DNA from: Shouchella miscanthi
GTDB lineage: Bacteria; Bacillota; Bacilli; Bacillales; Bacillaceae_D
Reading direction: 5' to 3'
Assembly: GCF_007725405.1 (NCBI RefSeq)
Contig: NZ_CP042163.1
Coordinates: 806,001 to 870,000 of the forward strand
Length of the DNA stretch: 64,000 nucleotides
The notes under the pieces were generated by a model. It did not search any database and had not been told where the DNA came from. It worked only from the letters and a program-made list of their open reading frames with translations. The translations under genes and the position numbers were made by a program. Below, piece by piece: positions 46,876 to 55,800 of the stretch. Every line of letters begins with the position of its first letter. Position 1 is the stretch's first letter.

Positions 46876-47214
46876 GTCGTCTCCTCCTTAATGAAATAAG
46901 GTGTCTGCTTTCATGAGAAGTTGTTCTAGTTATAAGTATAAAAGCTAGAGGTTTCTTGCACAGTTGGGAAAAAAAGAACGAGGTTGGGAAAATCATGGCG
47001 AATCAGAATGGCTAATGTAGAAAAATGGTTTTTGTCTGTTCGATCGTTAGATTTTATAACGTACTTGTAGTTTGGATATAACAAGGTGCGCTACTATTAG
47101 TGAAACTTCCTAAGAATGAATCGATAAATTTGGAAATGGTTCACCATTACTTCGTTTCCTCGTGTTGCTAGAATGAAAGAAATTCAACCAACAGCTAAAA
47201 AAGAGGTGACTGGA
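46876..47214. other. Divergent control region between the glucanase and the heterocycle cluster
   Basis: 339 bases. The direct repeat GTTGGGAAAA occurs twice with a 20-base period near 46960-46997. No clear promoter consensus or palindrome is seen. Regulation of the rightward cluster would be expected here, given its PucR gene. Confidence 0.35.
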
Positions 47215-48258
47215 ATGAACTACGATATGATTCGATGTGATATGAGACATCCAGGAGATGTGACGGCTTTAGAAGCGTTACTTGATACAAATCAGGTAAA
47301 TGCGAAAGAGATTAAAGCGATCATAGCTCAAACCGAGGGAGATGGCTACGCACGAGGCTATGCAACCCTTGCTTTCCAACAATTATTATCAGAACGTTTA
47401 GACATTAGCAAGGAAGAGGTATTTGCTTCCATTCCTATGATGATGATTGGAAAGACAGGGGGGTTAATGACGCCGCATTTTACCCTTTTCTTAAAGAAAG
47501 AAAGTGAGCAAGTAGGTGACGGTACGAAGCGATTTAGCTTTGGCGTCCAATCAACACGACCACTACGTAAAGAAGAAATTGGAACATTAGCCCAAGTGGA
47601 TCTTGTATGTGAAGCAGTAGAAGCGGCTATAAAAGAAGCGAATATTGAACAGCTAGAAGACGTTAAATGTGTTGAAATTAAATGCCCCTGGGGCGAAGGT
47701 GGAAGCTTGTCAAAGGCTGCTGCAGCATTAGGTTCTGCCGTCGCACTAGGTGAGGTTGACCGTTCCAAATTAACAGAAGCAAGTGTAAACAGGGATCATT
47801 CACTTTATTCAACAAAAACAAGTGTCTCTGCAGGACAAGAGCAAGTCGCGGCAAGAGTGATTGTCATGGGGAATTCAGTCACTTCTGTAAGTGAGCTAAA
47901 GATTGGTGCCGGTGTGATGGATGATGCACTTGATTTAGTCGGCTTGCAACAGGCATTTGAAGATGTTGGATTAAAAGCAGACGGGTTTCTTACAAAAGCA
48001 CAGCAAGAAAAAGTGATACAGGTCTTTGTGAATGCTGGAGCAGATGCGCTTCCAGATATTCGTGGTCAACGCCATACCATGCATACCGATGCATTAAGCA
48101 TGCATGCCGGAATTTTAGCAAAAGCCGTTGCCAATGCGGTTGTCGGCAGCTATGTAGGCGAAACGAGAATTCTTTGTTCAGCAGGATCAGAGCACCAAGG
48201 TCCTCAAGGTGCTAATCTCATTGCCCCCATTGTTCGAATTGTAGGAGGTGTAGCATGA
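47215..48258 (+). CDS. Ring-opening amidohydrolase (cyanuric acid hydrolase/barbiturase family)
   Basis: A 347-residue protein of the AtzD/TrzD/barbiturase family, which hydrolyses cyanurate to carboxybiuret or barbiturate to ureidomalonate using Ser-Lys pairs in three related domains. Family motifs: KTGGLMTPHF, IKCPWGEGGSL, SAGQEQVAARVIVMGNS, and SAGSEHQGPQG near the C-terminus. Which substrate is used cannot be decided by eye. The ATG at 47215 follows AGAGGTGA; the upstream frame to 47173 is rejected. First gene of the cluster, overlapping the next by 4 bases. Confidence 0.88.
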   Translation: MNYDMIRCDMRHPGDVTALEALLDTNQVNAKEIKAIIAQTEGDGYARGYATLAFQQLLSERLDISKEEVFASIPMMMIGKTGGLMTPHFTLFLKKESEQVGDGTKRFSFGVQSTRPLRKEEIGTLAQVDLVCEAVEAAIKEANIEQLEDVKCVEIKCPWGEGGSLSKAAAALGSAVALGEVDRSKLTEASVNRDHSLYSTKTSVSAGQEQVAARVIVMGNSVTSVSELKIGAGVMDDALDLVGLQQAFEDVGLKADGFLTKAQQEKVIQVFVNAGADALPDIRGQRHTMHTDALSMHAGILAKAVANAVVGSYVGETRILCSAGSEHQGPQGANLIAPIVRIVGGVA

Positions 48259-49268
48259 AGACCATTCAAACAGGCTGGAAAAACTATCATGCCCATCTTG
48301 ATAAAGGCTTTCTTATTCCACCGAATCGGTACGAAGATGCACCTGCCTCAGTAAGGGCGGAGTGGACACGTGACGCAAAGGTGATGATGACGAAGCAAGA
48401 TATGAAACGAGCGGCAAATCAAGCGCTAGAAAAAATGATCGCACACGGCACTACGTACGTGCGAACCCATGTAGATGTCGATCCGTTAGTTGAGCTTCGA
48501 GGGATTGAGGCGATGCTAGAAGTACAGCAAGAATGGAAGGATCGAGTGGTTCTCGACATTATTGCATTTAACCAAGAAGGATTTGATCGCTTTCCTGAAA
48601 CAAAGTTGTTGCTAGAAGAAGCGCTTAAGCTAGATGTGAATGGCATAGGCGGCCATACGAGCATGGATAAGGATGCAAAAGCTCATATTCATAACATTTT
48701 TGCACTAGCAGAGAAGAAGAATCTTAATTGGATAGAATTCCACACTGATGAAACAGGCAATCCGCAAGATTTTAATCTTCCCTATTTAGCAGATATTACG
48801 AACCGCCTCGGCTATAAACAGAAGGTGACAGCTATACATTGTTGTTCGCTTGCAAATGTAGAAGATGAGCTCGCTAAACAAACGATTGAAAAGGTAGCGG
48901 ATGCTGGTATGACGGTGACCACTTGCCCAACGGCTATTGCGACTAGGAAATTGACAAGAGTAAAGGAGTTGGCAAAAGCAGGTGTACCCATACAGGTTGG
49001 TTCTGACAATCTACGAGACTACTTTAATCCTTTAGGTAGCGGGAATATGTTGCAATACGGCCAATTGCTTGCTTATGTTCAGCGTTTCTACGAAAAAGAA
49101 GAAATCGAACAGTTGCTATCTTGGTTAAGCGCTAATCCAATGAATCAACAGGTAGCGCTAGCGATTGAGGGGCTTAATCGGAACGTGGCTTACGAGGTGG
49201 ACCGCCTCAGTGATTTGCTCGCAGATGTGCCAGTGATTACGTCAACGGAAAAAACGATTTACTCATGA
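48255..49268 (+). CDS. Cytosine deaminase-like amidohydrolase
   Basis: A 337-residue metal hydrolase close to the CodA type. Metal ligands: HAH (residues 12-14), His in IEFHTDE, His in AIHCCSLAN and Asp in GSDNLRD, followed by FNPLGSGNMLQ as in CodA. Probably deaminates an amino-substituted pyrimidine or triazine to the substrate of the adjacent ring-opening enzyme. Shorter than CodA (about 427), lacking much of the flanking beta-sandwich domain. Confidence 0.85.
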   Translation: MKTIQTGWKNYHAHLDKGFLIPPNRYEDAPASVRAEWTRDAKVMMTKQDMKRAANQALEKMIAHGTTYVRTHVDVDPLVELRGIEAMLEVQQEWKDRVVLDIIAFNQEGFDRFPETKLLLEEALKLDVNGIGGHTSMDKDAKAHIHNIFALAEKKNLNWIEFHTDETGNPQDFNLPYLADITNRLGYKQKVTAIHCCSLANVEDELAKQTIEKVADAGMTVTTCPTAIATRKLTRVKELAKAGVPIQVGSDNLRDYFNPLGSGNMLQYGQLLAYVQRFYEKEEIEQLLSWLSANPMNQQVALAIEGLNRNVAYEVDRLSDLLADVPVITSTEKTIYS

Positions 49269-49282
49269 GAGGTGGAGTGACG

Positions 49283-50110
49283 ATGCAATCAAAAACAGAG
49301 ACAACGTGGATGAAACAAGCAAAACCAAAAAGCGTCAAACGTATTCAAGTACCACATTCATTGTGGGCAGGATTTACATTAATCGGTTTCTTCCTTGTTT
49401 GGCAGTTAGCAACGATGCTGTTAGCCATTCCCCAATACTTACTGCCATCGCCAATAAGTATCTTCACGCGTGTGCTAAGCGAATCACAATTATTACTCTC
49501 TCATGCGCTGACAACACTTGCAGAAGTAGGATTAGGCTTTGCACTAAGTCTATCTATTGGCATTCCTCTCGCCATTGCAATTGTGTACTCTCGTTATTTG
49601 GCAAACGCCCTATACCCAATTTTGATTGCGATTCAATGTATTCCTATGGTATCGATTGCGCCCATTCTTGTCATCTGGTTTGGCTATGGGTTAACGACAA
49701 AAATTTTGCTCGCTTGTCTAATCTCTTTTTTTCCTATTGTCATAAATGCTGTAACTGGCTTTCGTTCATTAGATAAAGACATGCATGATCTCGGACGTTC
49801 AATTGGCATTTCAGAGTGGAAAAATTTCTTCTATTTACGATTACCGAATGCTCTTCCTCATCTATTCGGAGGAATAAAAGTAGGCGTCACATTAGCCGTT
49901 GTGGGAGCCGTTGTCGGGGAGTTTGTCGCTTCGGAACGGGGTCTTGGTTATTTGCAACTCACTGCAAACGCAAGACTTGATACACCCCTTGTGTTTGCGA
50001 CATTATTTACCCTTGCGCTTATAGGAATGTTGTTGTTCGGAGCAGTTCAATTACTTGAAAGATGGATAATGCCTTGGTATAGCGCCAATAAAGCGGGGAG
50101 TGAGCGGTAA
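49283..50110 (+). CDS. ABC transporter permease (SsuC/ThiX-like)
   Basis: A 275-residue permease with six transmembrane segments and the EEA-like loop DLGRSIGISEWKNFFYLRLPNALPH. GEFVASERGLGYL is typical of the nitrate/sulfonate/taurine/pyrimidine-precursor family. The ATG at 49283 follows AGAGGTGGAG. Forms an importer with the next two genes. Confidence 0.9.
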   Translation: MQSKTETTWMKQAKPKSVKRIQVPHSLWAGFTLIGFFLVWQLATMLLAIPQYLLPSPISIFTRVLSESQLLLSHALTTLAEVGLGFALSLSIGIPLAIAIVYSRYLANALYPILIAIQCIPMVSIAPILVIWFGYGLTTKILLACLISFFPIVINAVTGFRSLDKDMHDLGRSIGISEWKNFFYLRLPNALPHLFGGIKVGVTLAVVGAVVGEFVASERGLGYLQLTANARLDTPLVFATLFTLALIGMLLFGAVQLLERWIMPWYSANKAGSER

Positions 50111-50892
50111 TGACTACGAGCCTTGAACTAAATCATATCGGTAAAGTGTATCAAACGAGAACAGGTGAAGTACAAGCGCTATCTCATGTGCATCTGTCGA
50201 TTGCCTCTCGTTCGTTTGTTTCCATTGTTGGTCCGAGTGGTTGTGGGAAAAGCACAGTGATGCGTATTATCGCAGGCCTTGAACAGCCGTCAACAGGATC
50301 CATTAAAAAGAATGGAGCAAATCTTGAAAACCATCGTGACGATATGGCGGTCGTATTCCAAAAAGATGTCTTGTTAGCTTGGCGATCGGTTCTTGATAAC
50401 GTGTTGTTTCCAATTGAAATCAAGCATGGGAAGAAACAAAAAAAAGCAACTGTTGATAAAGCCATGCAGCTACTGAAAAGCGTCGGGTTAGCAGGGTTTG
50501 AACAGAAATATCCGCATGAGTTATCGGGTGGAATGAAACAGCGAGTAGCGATTTGTCGGGCACTTATTCAAGATCCACAGCTATTGCTAATGGATGAACC
50601 CTTTGGTGCTCTTGATGCATTAACACGAGAGCAAATGATGTACGATTTGTTGCGCTTGTCCGATACGTATCAATTTACAACCGTTTTTATTACTCACAGC
50701 ATTGAGGAAGCTGTGTTTCTATCAGATAAAGTGGTTGTGATGTCTGGACGACCGGGTTCCATTGTAAAAGAAATTCCATCTACACTTTCTCGTCCACGGA
50801 ATGGTGATACAAGAAAAGAGCCTGAATTTACTGGACAGGTATCCACCATCCGATCCATTTTCCAAACGCAGGGCATTTTGGCGGAAGCTTAA
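50110..50892 (+). CDS. ABC transporter ATP-binding protein (SsuB/ThiZ-like)
   Basis: A 260-residue ATPase: Walker A GPSGCGKST near residue 41, signature LSGGMKQRVAICRAL, Walker [18 protein letters not shown] and switch His in FITHSIEEAVFLSDKVVVM. Its ATG overlaps the permease stop (TAATG). Energises the importer of this cluster. Confidence 0.93.
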   Translation: MTTSLELNHIGKVYQTRTGEVQALSHVHLSIASRSFVSIVGPSGCGKSTVMRIIAGLEQPSTGSIKKNGANLENHRDDMAVVFQKDVLLAWRSVLDNVLFPIEIKHGKKQKKATVDKAMQLLKSVGLAGFEQKYPHELSGGMKQRVAICRALIQDPQLLLMDEPFGALDALTREQMMYDLLRLSDTYQFTTVFITHSIEEAVFLSDKVVVMSGRPGSIVKEIPSTLSRPRNGDTRKEPEFTGQVSTIRSIFQTQGILAEA

Positions 50893-50911
50893 GCAGAAAA
50901 GGAGGAAAAAA

Positions 50912-51949
50912 ATGAAACGATTTATTCCTTATACAGTAGCAGGGTGCTTCGTAGGCTTACTGGCGGGTTGTGGAAATGAAGGAGGGAGCTCCTTAGCTAA
51001 TCCAACGGTAAATGCTGACACAGGTGAAATTGGAGAGCCAGAGGTGGAAGATATTACGCTCCGCTTAAACTGGCGTTTTAAAGGGGAGTTTGCTCCTTTC
51101 TACGTTGCACAAGAAAAAGGTTTTTTTGAAGAATACGGGTTAAATGTCGACGTACTTGAAGGAAATGGCTCGACAAGTGTGATGCAAACAGTGGCTCAGG
51201 GTCAAGATGATTTAGGAATTACATCAACTGTTGAACCAGCTCAAGGAGTAGAAGAAGGGATGCCTATTACAATGATTGCAACGTACATGAATTCTTCTCC
51301 GATAATGATTGCTTCACACCCAGATGCCCCAGTGGAAACTCCGACAGATTTAGAAGGAAAATCAATCGCAATGGCCATTGCATCGACCTTTACGAATATT
51401 TTTCCGCGCTTTTTGGAAGAAGAGAATGTAAATGCCAGTGAAGTAGAGGCCGTGCAAGTAGAAGCTTCTGCTCGGAACGGTCTGTTCTTAGGAAAAGAAG
51501 TCGATGCTGTAGCGATCTTTTCAACAAATGAACTGCCGGTATTTGAGAAAGAACTGGGCTATGAATTGACTTCACTTTATTTAAGTGAGTATCAATTTGA
51601 TTTAGCGGGATTAACAGTGATCGGCAATAATCAGTTTCTGAATGACAATCCAAATACGGCAGCGCGTTTTCTTGCAGCGATGGATGAGGCATTCCGTTAT
51701 ACATTGGAACATATAGACGAAGCTGTCGCCATATCTGCAGAGCGATTTCCAGATGCTGTTGATGAAGAGATCGTCAGAGAACAATTGACGTTGCTTGAAG
51801 AAATTGCTCAATTTGACTCAGTACCGTTTGGCTGGATAGCAGAAGAGAATATTGCTGAAACATTAACCATTTTAGAGGGCAGTGGGTTAATTTCAGACAA
51901 ACAAGAAGCAGAAGCGTATTTTACGAATGAATTTTTTCAGCTTGATTAG
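50912..51949 (+). CDS. NMT1/THI5-like substrate-binding lipoprotein
   Basis: A 345-residue lipoprotein with lipobox LLAGC near residue 18 and a SsuA/NMT1-type fold: LRLNWRFKGEFAPFYVAQEKGFFEEYGL is diagnostic of proteins that bind pyrimidine precursors, sulfonates or aromatic N-heterocycles. AAGGAGG upstream. Paired with permease and ATPase; its ligand is presumably the cluster's heterocycle. Confidence 0.9.
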   Translation: MKRFIPYTVAGCFVGLLAGCGNEGGSSLANPTVNADTGEIGEPEVEDITLRLNWRFKGEFAPFYVAQEKGFFEEYGLNVDVLEGNGSTSVMQTVAQGQDDLGITSTVEPAQGVEEGMPITMIATYMNSSPIMIASHPDAPVETPTDLEGKSIAMAIASTFTNIFPRFLEEENVNASEVEAVQVEASARNGLFLGKEVDAVAIFSTNELPVFEKELGYELTSLYLSEYQFDLAGLTVIGNNQFLNDNPNTAARFLAAMDEAFRYTLEHIDEAVAISAERFPDAVDEEIVREQLTLLEEIAQFDSVPFGWIAEENIAETLTILEGSGLISDKQEAEAYFTNEFFQLD

Positions 51950-51966
51950 TAGCGGGGTGGATAAAG

Positions 51967-53592
51967 ATGAGCACCTTTCATAAAAGAGGACTAACGATTG
52001 AGCGCCTGCTTGAGCTTGAGCCTTTACATGGTGCTCAGTTAATAACGGGTGAACAAAATAAGCGAAACCGAATTTCAAGAATTAACATCATGGGTTCACC
52101 GGATATTGATCAATTTGTGCGTCCAGAAGAATTTGTTATGACAACAGGCTATTTGTTTAAGGACAATACCATCCATTTAAAGAAGCTGATCGATGCCCTT
52201 CATGACAGAGGGGTAACCGGAATGGGTATTAAAGTGGAGCGTTTTATTGATGTCATTCCAGAAGATCTTTTGAGCCGTGCGCGCGAGTTGTCTTTCCCAG
52301 TCATTGAAATCCGTCCACAAACCATATTTTCTGATGTCGTGAGGGTAGCAATGGAAGAAGTGTTTTATCAGGAATCTGAGCATCTAGTCACTTTGTATCA
52401 TCGCGTACAAGTCTTTATGGATCAACTAAATCGTGATCATTCTTTACCTGATTTATTGGCAGGAATTGAACAGATGATTGGCAATCCAATTGTGGTACTG
52501 GATTTTGAGGAACAGCTTACTGCACCACTGTTTGAGCAAGTGTTAGAACCGAAAGAGTGTCTCCACCTTAACCATACGTTAGAAGCAAAAGCAGGCATTG
52601 GTAAAACAACGATTACGATTAGAGACGAATCGTTTCAATGTTACTGTGTGCCTCTTGTATCGGAAGGTCTTATTCACTTTGTTCCCTATATAGCATGTAT
52701 TGAGACGAATGTTGATCTCACGGAAGTGGATTGTATGACACTAGATAAAGTGAGTTCAATGTTAAGTATCGAGCTGACCAATCAAACGGCTAGAAAACGA
52801 ATTGAACAAAAATATTTAAACCAATTTGTTAAAGAATTAGTTGTTGGAGACATTGTTTCGGATTATGAAATTGATCTACGCGCCCATTCATTCGATTTAG
52901 ATTTAAAAGATAAGTGGTTCCAAACCGTTATTTTAGATCTGGAAGGAGGAGTATTTTCTGATGTTACGGCATTTCAACTTTTCTTAAAGAAAATGACAAT
53001 GCAGTCACACGGTCAAGTAGTAGGAACATCATTAGATAAGGCGTTTGTCATGCTGCTATGTGTGAAACAAAAAGCAAGCATACCGAACATGCTTCAGATC
53101 ATCGAAACGGCTGTTAACCGAATCGTCAAGAAAGACGGTCAACGCCCCCTTTATCAACTTTACGGGGGAAGAGCTGTTCAAGACATTGCTCACATTAAGC
53201 AAAGCTTTAATGAAGCTTATCATGTAAAGACCATCGCAAAACATAATCAGTTAACAGCGCCTGTAGTGAACTATGACGATTTACATGTCTATCAGCTCCT
53301 ATACCATTTACCACAAACGCCTGAAGTCGCTCATTATCTTGAAGAAATAATTGGTCCATTACGAAGCACAAGAAATGATGCCCTTTATTTCGAAACATTA
53401 GATGTTTTTTTTAAGAATAACAAGAATGTTCGCGCCACTGCTGACACCTTATATGCTCACTACAATACGATTGTGTACCGTTTGGAGAAAATTTCAACAT
53501 TACTTGGAATCGATTTGCAAGATGCAGAAGCATGCTTAGAACTTCAGCTAGCTTTAAAACTTCGATTTACTCATTTATTTAAAGGAGGATGA
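51967..53592 (+). CDS. PucR-family transcriptional regulator
   Basis: A 541-residue regulator: N-terminal PucR sensory domain (residues about 10-130, with VRPEEFVMTTGYLF), a GGDEF-like/CdaR middle region, and a C-terminal PucR-type helix-turn-helix (about 480-535, with NVRATADTLYAHYNTIVYRLEKI). In B. subtilis PucR controls purine catabolism. Its position inside the operon points to control of this pathway by its own substrate. Confidence 0.92.
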   Translation: MSTFHKRGLTIERLLELEPLHGAQLITGEQNKRNRISRINIMGSPDIDQFVRPEEFVMTTGYLFKDNTIHLKKLIDALHDRGVTGMGIKVERFIDVIPEDLLSRARELSFPVIEIRPQTIFSDVVRVAMEEVFYQESEHLVTLYHRVQVFMDQLNRDHSLPDLLAGIEQMIGNPIVVLDFEEQLTAPLFEQVLEPKECLHLNHTLEAKAGIGKTTITIRDESFQCYCVPLVSEGLIHFVPYIACIETNVDLTEVDCMTLDKVSSMLSIELTNQTARKRIEQKYLNQFVKELVVGDIVSDYEIDLRAHSFDLDLKDKWFQTVILDLEGGVFSDVTAFQLFLKKMTMQSHGQVVGTSLDKAFVMLLCVKQKASIPNMLQIIETAVNRIVKKDGQRPLYQLYGGRAVQDIAHIKQSFNEAYHVKTIAKHNQLTAPVVNYDDLHVYQLLYHLPQTPEVAHYLEEIIGPLRSTRNDALYFETLDVFFKNNKNVRATADTLYAHYNTIVYRLEKISTLLGIDLQDAEACLELQLALKLRFTHLFKGG

Positions 53593-53599
53593 TGATGAA

Positions 53600-54784
53600 A
53601 TGATGGAATCACGAGCATTTATACAAAGAGGTTGGAGCGTGAAGGAGAACAAAAGGGAAGGAAGTTTACATACGTATACATTTGCTGTGAAGGATGTGTT
53701 TGATATTCAAGGGCACACGTCTAGTGCTGGGAATCCTGACTGGCTTGCTACGCATGAAACAGCGACCACCTATGCCCCGGCTATTAAGCAACTCTTACAT
53801 GAAGGGGCAACCCTTGTTGGTACAACGTTAACAGATGAATTAATGTTTAGTTTAAATGGAGAAAACGTTCATTATGGAACGCCAATTAATCCTGTGGCAA
53901 ACGACCGTATACCAGGGGGATCTTCTAGTGGATCGGCTGTTGCTGTAGCAGACGGTTCCGTTGATTTTGCTCTTGGTACAGATACAGCTGGTTCGGTTCG
54001 TATTCCGGCAAGCTATTGTGGTATTTATGGTTTTCGGCCTACTCATAACGCTGTCTCGATAGAAGGTGTTATTCCACTTGCTGCTCGTTTTGATACAGTT
54101 GGATGGTTTGCACGCTCTGCCTCTTTGCTAGAAAACGTAGGAAACGTCCTGTTACCAAAAAGTGATAAACAGCCAACGGCCTTTTCAACCGTATATGTAC
54201 CTGAAGAAGCATTACAACTTGTGCAGCCTCAAGTGGCAGAAGCCTTCTTAGCAGCGTTAAAAGCAATGGTAGGAGAGTTAACCATTGTCTCAATTCGTTT
54301 AACAACAGATCGGCTAGACACTTACATGGAGACTTTTCGCACGTTGCAAGGCTACCAAATATGGCAAACACATAGGGAATGGATCGAAACGCAGCAGCCA
54401 ACATTTGCAGATGACATTGCTACTCGATTTCGGTGGACTAGTACGATAACGATAGAAGAGCAAAGGCGTGCAGAAGAACAAGCCCTCATCATTAAATCCC
54501 AGCTACAAGAACGATTAAAAAACGGTGGTTTGTTAGCAATTCCAACTTCACCAGATGTGGCGCCGCTGGTTGGGACAGACCCGAGCGACCTAGAAGTGCA
54601 TCGGACGAATACATTTAAACTGACGGCTATTAGTGGGTTGGCTGAAAGTCCACAAGTAACAATGCCGCGCTTAACCGTTCATGGCTTACCAGTAGGTCTG
54701 TCTTTTCTAGCACACAAGCACAATGATTTGGCACTTTTGCAATTTGCACGAAGCGTACAAGAAAAAGAAGAGGTGTTGTTATGA
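53600..54784 (+). CDS. Amidase signature-family hydrolase
   Basis: A 394-residue amidase with the Ser-cisSer-Lys triad visible: Lys31 in AVKDVFDI, Ser108 in PGGSSSGSAVA and Ser132 in GTDTAGSVRIPAS (the 24-residue spacing between the serines is the family norm). In context it could be a ureidomalonase, biuret hydrolase or allophanate hydrolase acting on the ring-opened product. Shorter than AtzF and without its C-terminal domain. Ends in a 4-base overlap with the FAH gene. Confidence 0.88.
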   Translation: MMESRAFIQRGWSVKENKREGSLHTYTFAVKDVFDIQGHTSSAGNPDWLATHETATTYAPAIKQLLHEGATLVGTTLTDELMFSLNGENVHYGTPINPVANDRIPGGSSSGSAVAVADGSVDFALGTDTAGSVRIPASYCGIYGFRPTHNAVSIEGVIPLAARFDTVGWFARSASLLENVGNVLLPKSDKQPTAFSTVYVPEEALQLVQPQVAEAFLAALKAMVGELTIVSIRLTTDRLDTYMETFRTLQGYQIWQTHREWIETQQPTFADDIATRFRWTSTITIEEQRRAEEQALIIKSQLQERLKNGGLLAIPTSPDVAPLVGTDPSDLEVHRTNTFKLTAISGLAESPQVTMPRLTVHGLPVGLSFLAHKHNDLALLQFARSVQEKEEVLL

Positions 54785-55656
54785 AACTTGTATCCTATAA
54801 AACGAATGAAGAAGAGCAAGGAGCGATTGAGCTTGATGGGAAACTAATTCCGCTCCTTGCCTTGAACGACCATTTTCAATTTCATTACGAAACAACGGTT
54901 TTTTCCTTACTGGAAAAAGGACAGTATGAGTCTCTGAAAAACTGGTATGTACATGAGGGAAAAGAAGCGCTAGCAAATTCTTCTTTGCCTTTTCTAGAAG
55001 AATGGGCACCTGCCCCCCTCTATAGACATCCACGAAAAATATGGGGAATTGGTATGAACTACAGGAAAGGTGATGAGGATCAATTTGCTTCAAATACGGT
55101 TGCTCCTGTTAGCTTTATGAAACCAGACACTAGTTTAATAGGGGCGGGAGATCTCATTCAAATACCTCCTTTATCTAAAAATACGACGGCAGAAGCAGAA
55201 CTGGCACTCGTCATAGGAAAAACGTGCAAGGAAGTGTCAGAAGCTGATGCACTTGACTATGTAGCTGGGGTTGCAGCCGCCCTTGACATGACTGAAGCAG
55301 ACATCCACGCCGAAAACTTACGCTATCTGACACGAGCAAAAAGCTTTAACACGTTCTTTAGCTTCGGTTCAGAACTTGTTAGTTTAGATGAATATCCATG
55401 TTTAGATGATATTCACGTTACGACACTACAGGACGGGGAGGAGCAGCATACCAATCGGATAGGAGCCATGCGGTATAGCCTAGCCTATATTGTTTCTTTT
55501 CATTCAGAAGTGATGACCCTTTTGCCAGGTGATATCCTACTAACTGGTACACCTGGAGCGGTCGTCTTGCGGGATGGCGTTGTAGTGTCTTGTCGTATTA
55601 GTGGGTTCAGTAAGGAGTTAGAAAACAAGGCTGCGAGCAAAGGGATACTTTCTTAA
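54781..55656 (+). CDS. Fumarylacetoacetate hydrolase-family protein
   Basis: A 291-residue FAH-family enzyme. The metal-binding acidic residues are in TAEAELALVIG and ALDMTEADI; the catalytic region includes RAKSFNTFFSFG and GDILLTGTPGAV. Family members cleave or decarboxylate beta-keto acids or hydrolyse acylpyruvates. Its role at the end of this operon is unclear; it may process the acyl product of the amidase. Confidence 0.88.
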   Translation: MKLVSYKTNEEEQGAIELDGKLIPLLALNDHFQFHYETTVFSLLEKGQYESLKNWYVHEGKEALANSSLPFLEEWAPAPLYRHPRKIWGIGMNYRKGDEDQFASNTVAPVSFMKPDTSLIGAGDLIQIPPLSKNTTAEAELALVIGKTCKEVSEADALDYVAGVAAALDMTEADIHAENLRYLTRAKSFNTFFSFGSELVSLDEYPCLDDIHVTTLQDGEEQHTNRIGAMRYSLAYIVSFHSEVMTLLPGDILLTGTPGAVVLRDGVVVSCRISGFSKELENKAASKGILS

Positions 55657-55702: not shown

Positions 55703-55752
55703 GACAAACTTCACAGAAAAAGGAAGGTAGTCCTGATTTCTATGAAGTTTGT
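55703..55752. repeat. Long imperfect hairpin between converging genes
   Basis: ACAAACTTCA (55703-55712) and TGAAGTTTGT (55742-55751), extended by AGAAA/TTTCT after a mismatch, form a long stem with an unpaired loop. No T-run follows, so a bidirectional terminator is only possible. Confidence 0.45.
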
Positions 55753-55800
55753 GTCATCTCCCTGTTATGAGAAATAGGGATCTCCTAAGTGCTTGTACGA

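What the first reader, a model, noticed from the sequence alone, without database searches (positions are those of the whole stretch)
47215..55656. Putative complete pathway for uptake and hydrolysis of a nitrogen heterocycle
Eight contiguous, mostly overlapping genes combine a cyanurate/barbiturate ring-opening enzyme, a cytosine-deaminase-like enzyme, a pyrimidine-precursor-type ABC importer, a PucR regulator, an amidase with an intact Ser-Ser-Lys triad and an FAH-family enzyme. I infer the order: import, deamination, ring opening, amide cleavage, and processing of the acyl remnant. The combination with FAH and PucR does not match the known atzDEF, Rut, Pyd or classical barbiturase sets.
Basis: inference. 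Interest (0 to 1): 0.72.

Follow-up and report, generated by a model that had tools for sequence, protein, structure and literature searches.

The report
Operon for degrading a nitrogen ring
A Bacillus relative carries a conserved eight-gene operon that probably imports and breaks down an unidentified nitrogen-containing ring compound, using a ring-opening enzyme related to, but clearly different from, the enzymes that open cyanuric acid and barbituric acid.

Summary
Eight intact + strand genes (47215-55656) lie at the stated coordinates, tightly packed, in a Shouchella-like genome. Of 18 relatives' loci, 18 keep ring-opener and deaminase, 17 the binding protein, 16 the amidase, 17 the FAH gene.

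Relatives supply missing logic: 15 of 18 clusters add an isochorismatase-family hydrolase, and a sister clade has AllFGH-like ureide-phosphorolysis genes instead, so the ring probably opens to a ureide. A Paenibacillaceae cyanurate operon has the same layout.

Best reading: a re-specified variant of the Gram-positive cyanurate operon, acting on an amino-substituted, probably pyrimidine-type ring. Substrate unknown. 'Complete' is not shown: this cluster lacks the isochorismatase, and the FAH step is unexplained.

The parts
47215..48258 (+). AtzD-family ring-opening amidohydrolase, one-dyad (Group V-like) type; Ser205, Lys156, Glu209, Arg47 kept
   Evidence: Pfam 331.6 bits; residue counts; tree; model and fold match
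48255..49268 (+). AtzC/cytosine-deaminase-like amidohydrolase, short form (337 aa)
   Evidence: Best solved match AtzC 2qt3, 122.2 bits; motifs HAH, HTDE, HCCS, GSDN conserved in 18 sequences
49265..50110 (+). ABC importer permease
   Evidence: Pfam BPD_transp_1 108.2 bits
50110..50892 (+). ABC importer ATPase
   Evidence: Pfam ABC_tran 112.3 bits
50912..51949 (+). Substrate-binding lipoprotein, NMT1/THI5-like (ORF opens at 50801; likely start 50912)
   Evidence: Pfam NMT1 151.6 bits; solved matches 4nmy 71, 3ix1 51.2 bits; Shine-Dalgarno
51967..53592 (+). PucR-type transcriptional regulator
   Evidence: Pfam PucR 93.1 and HTH_30 73.9 bits
53600..54784 (+). Amidase-signature enzyme, PRK08310 type
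   Evidence: NCBIfam PRK08310 463.9 bits, cut-off 391; triad
54781..55656 (+). FAH-family enzyme with metal ligands but no canonical lid histidine
   Evidence: Pfam 146.7 bits; alignments
55704..55757 (+). Stem-loop after the last gene, possible end-of-operon structure
   Evidence: Folding z -3.69, 1 of 200 shuffles as good; no strong T-run, not listed by the terminator scan

Best explanation
The eight genes form one catabolic operon with its own PucR-type regulator, built on the plan of the Gram-positive cyanurate operon but re-specified for another ring. Proposed order: the NMT1-type ABC importer takes up an amino-substituted six-membered cyclic ureide, most likely a pyrimidine. The AtzC-like enzyme hydrolyses off the exocyclic amine to give an oxo ring. 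The one-dyad AtzD-like enzyme (Ser205 nucleophile, Lys156 base, Glu209, Arg47) hydrolyses one ring amide to a ureide. In most relatives an isochorismatase-family hydrolase then cleaves the ureide; here the amidase or a distant paralogue would have to. The amidase frees the last nitrogen, and the FAH protein acts on the carbon remnant (decarboxylation or tautomerisation). Shown: gene content, packing, conservation, modelled fold, residue pattern. Inferred: every reaction, the order, the substrate class.
Against: No substrate was identified. The isochorismatase gene is missing here and in S. oshimensis (L011), and the genome has no hit for urease alpha or AllG and no AtzF over cut-off, so the nitrogen route in this species is open. 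The amidase is absent from 2 of 18 clusters (L020, L025). FAH has no obvious role on a barbiturate or cyanurate remnant. Peat et al. 2013 proposed dyad A (Ser85-Lys42 of AtzD) as catalytic; if so, this enzyme, which lacks it, would be inactive on ring amides. The pyrimidine reading of the isochorismatase is weak: an unnamed hydrolase (3hb7) scores as well as RutB (88.5), a true BiuH (L067) scores 122.2 on the RutB model, and L016's protein prefers BiuH over RutB (73.1 against 67.5). The best match of the binding protein is 4nmy, not 3ix1. No transcription data.
Confidence: 0.55

Rival explanations
1. It is a divergent cyanurate (s-triazine) operon: AtzC-like makes cyanurate from an amino-triazine, AtzD opens it, amidase takes biuret or allophanate.
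Against: Dyads A and C broken, both arginines and motif changed in 22 of 22; R188K cost a cyanuric acid hydrolase 5,000-fold (passages); no AtzF over cut-off; FAH has no use for a carbon-free remnant.
Confidence: 0.12
2. It is a barbiturate-type route: 6-aminouracil or similar to barbiturate, then ureidomalonate, malonamate and malonate.
For: Ureide and amide hydrolases in the right order; amidase matches malonamidase E2 among others (82.7 bits); Lys in place of the domain-C Arg as in barbiturase.
Against: Barbiturase (L047) keeps three dyads and has other signature residues; a Group V member from Azorhizobium was inactive on barbiturate (section read); FAH unexplained.
Confidence: 0.18
3. A carboxylated pyrimidine such as orotate is opened to a ureidofumarate-like acid and ends as oxaloacetate, with FAH as an oxaloacetate tautomerase- or decarboxylase-like enzyme.
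For: PDB entry 5hy0 of the same fold is titled orotic acid hydrolase; RutB-like ureide hydrolase in relatives; new invariant Lys80 beside the lost dyad A in 19 of 19 window-type sequences; acid-type transporters beside the sister clade.
Against: 5hy0 is 31% identical and keeps three dyads; I recall that its paper reports no identified substrate; the amidase and deaminase have no clear role; the sister clade has Leu, not Lys, at 80.
Confidence: 0.13
4. The ring-opener no longer opens rings; the operon degrades a linear ureide or amide with the AtzD homologue in another or no catalytic role.
For: Loss of dyad A, of the dyad C lysine and of the metal Glu; Peat 2013 favoured dyad A as catalytic.
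Against: Ser205, Lys156, Glu209 and Arg47 invariant in 19 of 19 and the gene in 18 of 18 clusters.
Confidence: 0.08

Closest known systems
Gram-positive cyanurate operon in a Paenibacillaceae genome (L067: BiuH, binding protein, ATPase, permease, AtzD, PucR, AtzF)
   Same: PucR regulator, ABC importer of the same families, AtzD-family ring-opener, amidase-signature enzyme, and (in relatives of the window) an isochorismatase-family hydrolase
   Different: L067 AtzD, BiuH and AtzF pass curated cut-offs; the window has a one-dyad AtzD, no isochorismatase in the cluster, a PRK08310-type amidase, and adds AtzC-like and FAH genes
Cyanuric acid hydrolase AtzD/TrzD/Moorella CAH
   Different: Lys/Ser of dyad A are Gln/Ile, Lys of dyad C is Asn, both CAH arginines are Lys, metal Glu is Gly, 21 residues of domain 2 missing
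Barbiturase (5hwe; L047, 575 bits to it)
   Different: Barbiturase keeps three dyads and has other signature residues
Peat 2013 'Group V' of the AtzD family
   Same: Gly at the 321, Lys at the 325, Ala at the 345 and Gly at the 346 equivalents, as published; the group includes alkaliphilic Bacillus species
   Different: Entry 5hy0, which I recall as a class V enzyme from Frankia, keeps three dyads in the HMMER alignment and is 31% identical, so the group looks mixed
Sister clade with AllFGH (L051-L053)
   Same: One-dyad AtzD, AtzC-like deaminase, PucR
   Different: AllF, AllG (two copies) and AllH genes in place of isochorismatase, amidase and FAH; other transporters; no 21-residue deletion

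Membership tests
AtzD/TrzD (Toblerone) family | Pfam PF09663 and TIGR02714 over cut-off | tested here: met
   331.6 bits (cut-off 25) and 243.8 (153.1)
AtzD/TrzD (Toblerone) family | Ser-Lys dyad B, Glu at +4, Arg52 equivalent | tested here: met
   Ser205, Lys156, Glu209, Arg47; kept in 19 of 19 distinct window-type sequences
AtzD/TrzD (Toblerone) family | Toblerone fold | tested here: met
Cyanuric acid hydrolase | Three Ser-Lys dyads | tested here: not met
   Gln39/Ile78 (dyad A) and Asn273 (Lys of dyad C; its Ser322 is kept) in 22 of 22 clade members; Lys, Ser, Lys in 16 of 16 others
Cyanuric acid hydrolase | Two arginines (R194, R324 of AtzD) and motif SGGxExQGPxGGGP (PMC9118981, passages) | tested here: not met
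   Lys167, Lys303; motif reads SAGSEHQGPQGANL
Cyanuric acid hydrolase | NCBIfam equivalog NF052395 over cut-off 360 | tested here: not met
   283.7 bits; 245.6 to 297 in five relatives
Barbiturase | Asn195, His321, Lys325, Val345, Ser/Ala346 signature (Peat 2013, section 12) | tested here: not met
   Lys, Gly, Lys, Ala, Gly at the equivalents, so one of five agrees
Peat Group V | Gly/Arg/Trp321, Lys/Arg325, Gly/Ala345, Gly346 | tested here: met
   Gly299, Lys303, Ala323, Gly324
Peat Group V | Residue 195 equivalent absent | tested here: inconclusive
   A 21-residue deletion lies just before; my alignment places Lys167 there
Amidase signature family | Ser-cisSer-Lys triad | tested here: met
   Lys31, GGSSSGS at 106, Ser132
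AtzE or AtzF (atzDEF operon) | Curated cut-offs TIGR02715 and TIGR02713 | tested here: not met
   174.2 of 425.75 and 163 of 511.05; none over the AtzF cut-off in the genome
Cytosine deaminase / AtzC | Metal and catalytic motifs HxH, HxxE, H, D | tested here: met
   HAH, HTDE, HCCS, GSDN; key residues conserved in 18 sequences
Cytosine deaminase / AtzC | A curated NCBIfam cut-off | tested here: not met
   Six families matched, none over its cut-off; best 192.5 of 408, best equivalog 153.5 of 403
RutB or BiuH (isochorismatase of relatives) | Curated equivalog cut-offs | tested here: not met
   67.5 to 121.4 of 377.95 and 73.1 to 85.4 of 370 in the three relatives scanned
FAH family | Metal ligands ExE...D | tested here: met
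   Glu138, Glu140, Asp169; kept in 17 of 17 sequences. That these bind the metal is recalled
FAH family C-C hydrolase | Lid His-Glu pair | tested here: not met
   HpaG match has NYADHASE, the window NYRKGDED; no conserved His there in 17 sequences. That this pair is catalytic is recalled

The most novel reading that the evidence does not exclude
A previously undescribed hydrolytic pathway for an asymmetric, possibly carboxylated, aminopyrimidine, in which a Toblerone enzyme reduced to one complete Ser-Lys dyad opens the ring without reduction or oxygen, and the carbon ends as oxaloacetate or a similar acid through an FAH-family enzyme. It would stand beside the reductive (Pyd), oxygenase (Rut) and oxidative barbiturate routes of pyrimidine breakdown.
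Probability: 0.15. Interest if true: 0.75.

Novelty: new variant of a known kind. Interest (0 to 1): 0.5.

Why it matters
The AtzD family has sequence groups with no known substrate. This cluster ties one of them to a stable set of partner genes, so the substrate becomes searchable by growth tests and enzyme assays. The residue pattern (one of three symmetric dyads intact) is a natural experiment on how a threefold-symmetric active site is adapted to an asymmetric ring. The sister clade and at least 7 of 16 other AtzD-family sequences lie beside AllFGH-type genes, which suggests that ring opening can feed carbamoyl phosphate formation.

Tried and rejected
Cyanurate operon: not accepted as membership, because dyads, arginines, motif, curated cut-off and AtzF were tested and not met. 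Classical barbiturase: signature not met. Urea route: no urease alpha hit in this genome, while the same search rang in B. subtilis among 4 of 14 controls, so released urea would go unused. AllFGH in window-type clusters: 0 of 18 loci. Regulatory sites, patterns recalled: a TnrA-like pattern gave 8 hits (chance mean 13.9), a PucR-like pattern 75 hits (chance mean 62.8; 4 of 100 shuffles reach 75); nothing to build on. Promoter and terminator scans were at chance level. Plasmids: 131 records hold an AtzD relative, all under 60% identical. Plasmid neighbours of the closest amidases and FAH proteins (six regions, one without annotation) gave mixed contexts (HpxZ, molybdenum hydroxylases, SDR-FAH pairs) and no substrate. 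Ten genes outside the core in relatives gave no common theme. Structure: pLDDT is under 50 in residues 277-293, 325-327 and 345-347, near the third active-site strand, so the model says little about that side of the pocket. In both fold lists the rows below the AtzD family (chorismatase-type and others) are far weaker. Literature: ten answered searches; none listed a paper on this cluster, and 'ring-opening amidohydrolase' occurs in one paper, on Slackia and deoxynivalenol. That the cluster is undescribed rests on these searches of an open-licence library only.

Papers, what I saw: PMC4051656, PMC12625717, PMC11326118, PMC7948467 and PMC9118981, passages (and listings); PMC3758960, passages and sections 12 and 16; PMC6557486, passages, outline with abstract, and section 26; PMC6219798, outline with abstract. 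Seffernick 2012 (PMC3415516) and Peat 2017 (10.1128/AEM.03365-16) were not held; what I say of the latter is recalled.

Full report
What is there. Eight ATG-started, intact ORFs run on the + strand from 47215 to 55656 with junctions of -4, -4, -1, +19, +17, +7 and -4 bases. Pfam assigns ring-opening amidohydrolase, amidohydrolase, ABC permease, ABC ATPase, NMT1 binding protein, PucR regulator, amidase and FAH. The binding protein most likely starts at 50912. Opposite-strand genes flank the set, and a stem-loop follows it. The window lies in a 4.25 Mb single-contig genome; Shouchella oshimensis carries the same cluster with 95% identity in the ring-opener (L011).

Conservation. The scan of one genome per species found 17 loci that encode a relative, in Shouchella, Halalkalibacter, Bacillus sp., Alkalihalobacillus, Gracilibacillus, Saliterribacillus, Paenibacillus and Cohnella (close relatives only are within reach of that tool). 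Nine of 41 genomes of the family have the ring-opener, the window's own included, but only the window's own genome among 398 drawn from the class at E 1e-60. In 18 loci (L011-L027 and L054; L020 and L026 are short contigs, L015 ends within the amidase) the tblastn tally at 1e-8 is: ring-opener 18, deaminase 18, permease 17, ATPase 16, binding protein 17, isochorismatase 15 (L013 and L016 supplied the queries), amidase 16, FAH 17. PucR is 15 of 18 by that search; the three misses (L018, L020, L026) show weak PucR matches of 57, 62 and 39 bits by phmmer. Gene order varies between genera, so the set is not held together by recent descent alone.

Published grouping. Peat et al. 2013 define six groups. 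The window protein fits the Group V signature at four of four scorable positions; that group includes alkaliphilic Bacillus species and has one tested member, from Azorhizobium, inactive on cyanurate and barbiturate. Their remark that the dyad residues are conserved throughout the family does not hold for this clade. Entry 5hy0, titled orotic acid hydrolase, keeps the dyad residues in the HMMER alignment and is 31% identical, so it is not a close guide.

Chemistry suggested by neighbours. Fifteen of 18 loci have an isochorismatase-family hydrolase; Asp, Lys and Cys of the presumed triad are invariant in 12 aligned members. The one member compared with solved structures is nearest to RutB, ureidoacrylate amidohydrolase (88.8 bits), level with an unnamed hydrolase (88.5), and further from biuret hydrolase (46). 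On curated models the picture is softer: L013 and L018 prefer RutB, L016 prefers BiuH, none reaches a cut-off, and a true BiuH scores 122.2 on the RutB model. Three of three sister-clade loci have AllH, AllF (FdrA) and two AllG genes with the deaminase and PucR. AllFGH of E. coli splits oxalurate, a ureide, into oxamate and carbamoyl phosphate (PMC11326118, listing and passages). Both kinds of enzyme act on ureides, so I infer that ring opening yields a ureide. Of the 16 other AtzD-family sequences at least 7 lie beside FdrA or AllG genes (L028/L065, L029, L030/L066, L031/L056, L032/L068, L033/L064, L050); wide flanks were not searched for all. A Paenibacillaceae genome holds a full cyanurate operon with the layout of the window (L067).

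What remains open. This cluster lacks the isochorismatase; in a congener it lies between binding protein and PucR (L054, 14796-15437), where the window has 17 bases. The genome has three isochorismatase-family genes elsewhere, none close, no hit for urease alpha or AllG and no AtzF over cut-off. The amidase is of PRK08310 type (463.9, cut-off 391); one 46% identical lies beside a distant Group IV-like ring-opener and an FAH gene in L055, which hints that amidase and FAH form a module with ring-openers. The FAH protein keeps the metal ligands but lacks the lid histidine of its best solved match; the FAH of L055 has NYRRHVEE there.

Verdict. The cluster is real, conserved and catabolic in design. 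I rate it a new variant of a known kind with an unknown substrate.

Noticed in passing
L028/L065, L029, L030/L066, L031/L056, L032/L068, L033/L064, L050: AtzD genes with all three dyads, in Bacillota genomes and on a Klebsiella plasmid, lie beside FdrA or AllG genes (with carbamate kinase in L050), suggesting phosphorolytic use of the ring-opened ureide.
   Followed up: partly
L067:6021-14327: Gram-positive cyanurate operon in a Paenibacillaceae genome: BiuH, binding protein, ATPase, permease, AtzD, PucR, AtzF; AtzD, BiuH and AtzF over curated cut-offs.
   Followed up: yes
L055:3831-13859: Group IV-like AtzD in a cluster with an NCS1-like permease, xanthine-dehydrogenase-like subunits, an AllA-like protein, FAH, PRK08310 amidase and a 5'-deoxyadenosine-deaminase-type enzyme (permease, XDH and AllA names by eye or by match to L063); L063 (Acidithiobacillus caldus) has a similar set with AtzE and HpxZ.
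   Followed up: partly
L025:6094-9676: The amidase is not found and an 835-aa asparaginase with S-layer domains lies directly upstream of the FAH gene.
   Followed up: no
L022:6726-7982; L012:12279-13037; L016:5721-7235: Extra enzymes inside or beside single clusters: a second AtzC-like amidohydrolase, a nitrilase-family hydrolase, and a TRZ/ATZ-type amidohydrolase.
   Followed up: partly
window 47045-47061: Short palindrome CGTTAGATTTTATAACG about 150 bases upstream of the first gene; two mismatches from a recalled TnrA-box pattern, not above chance.
   Followed up: partly
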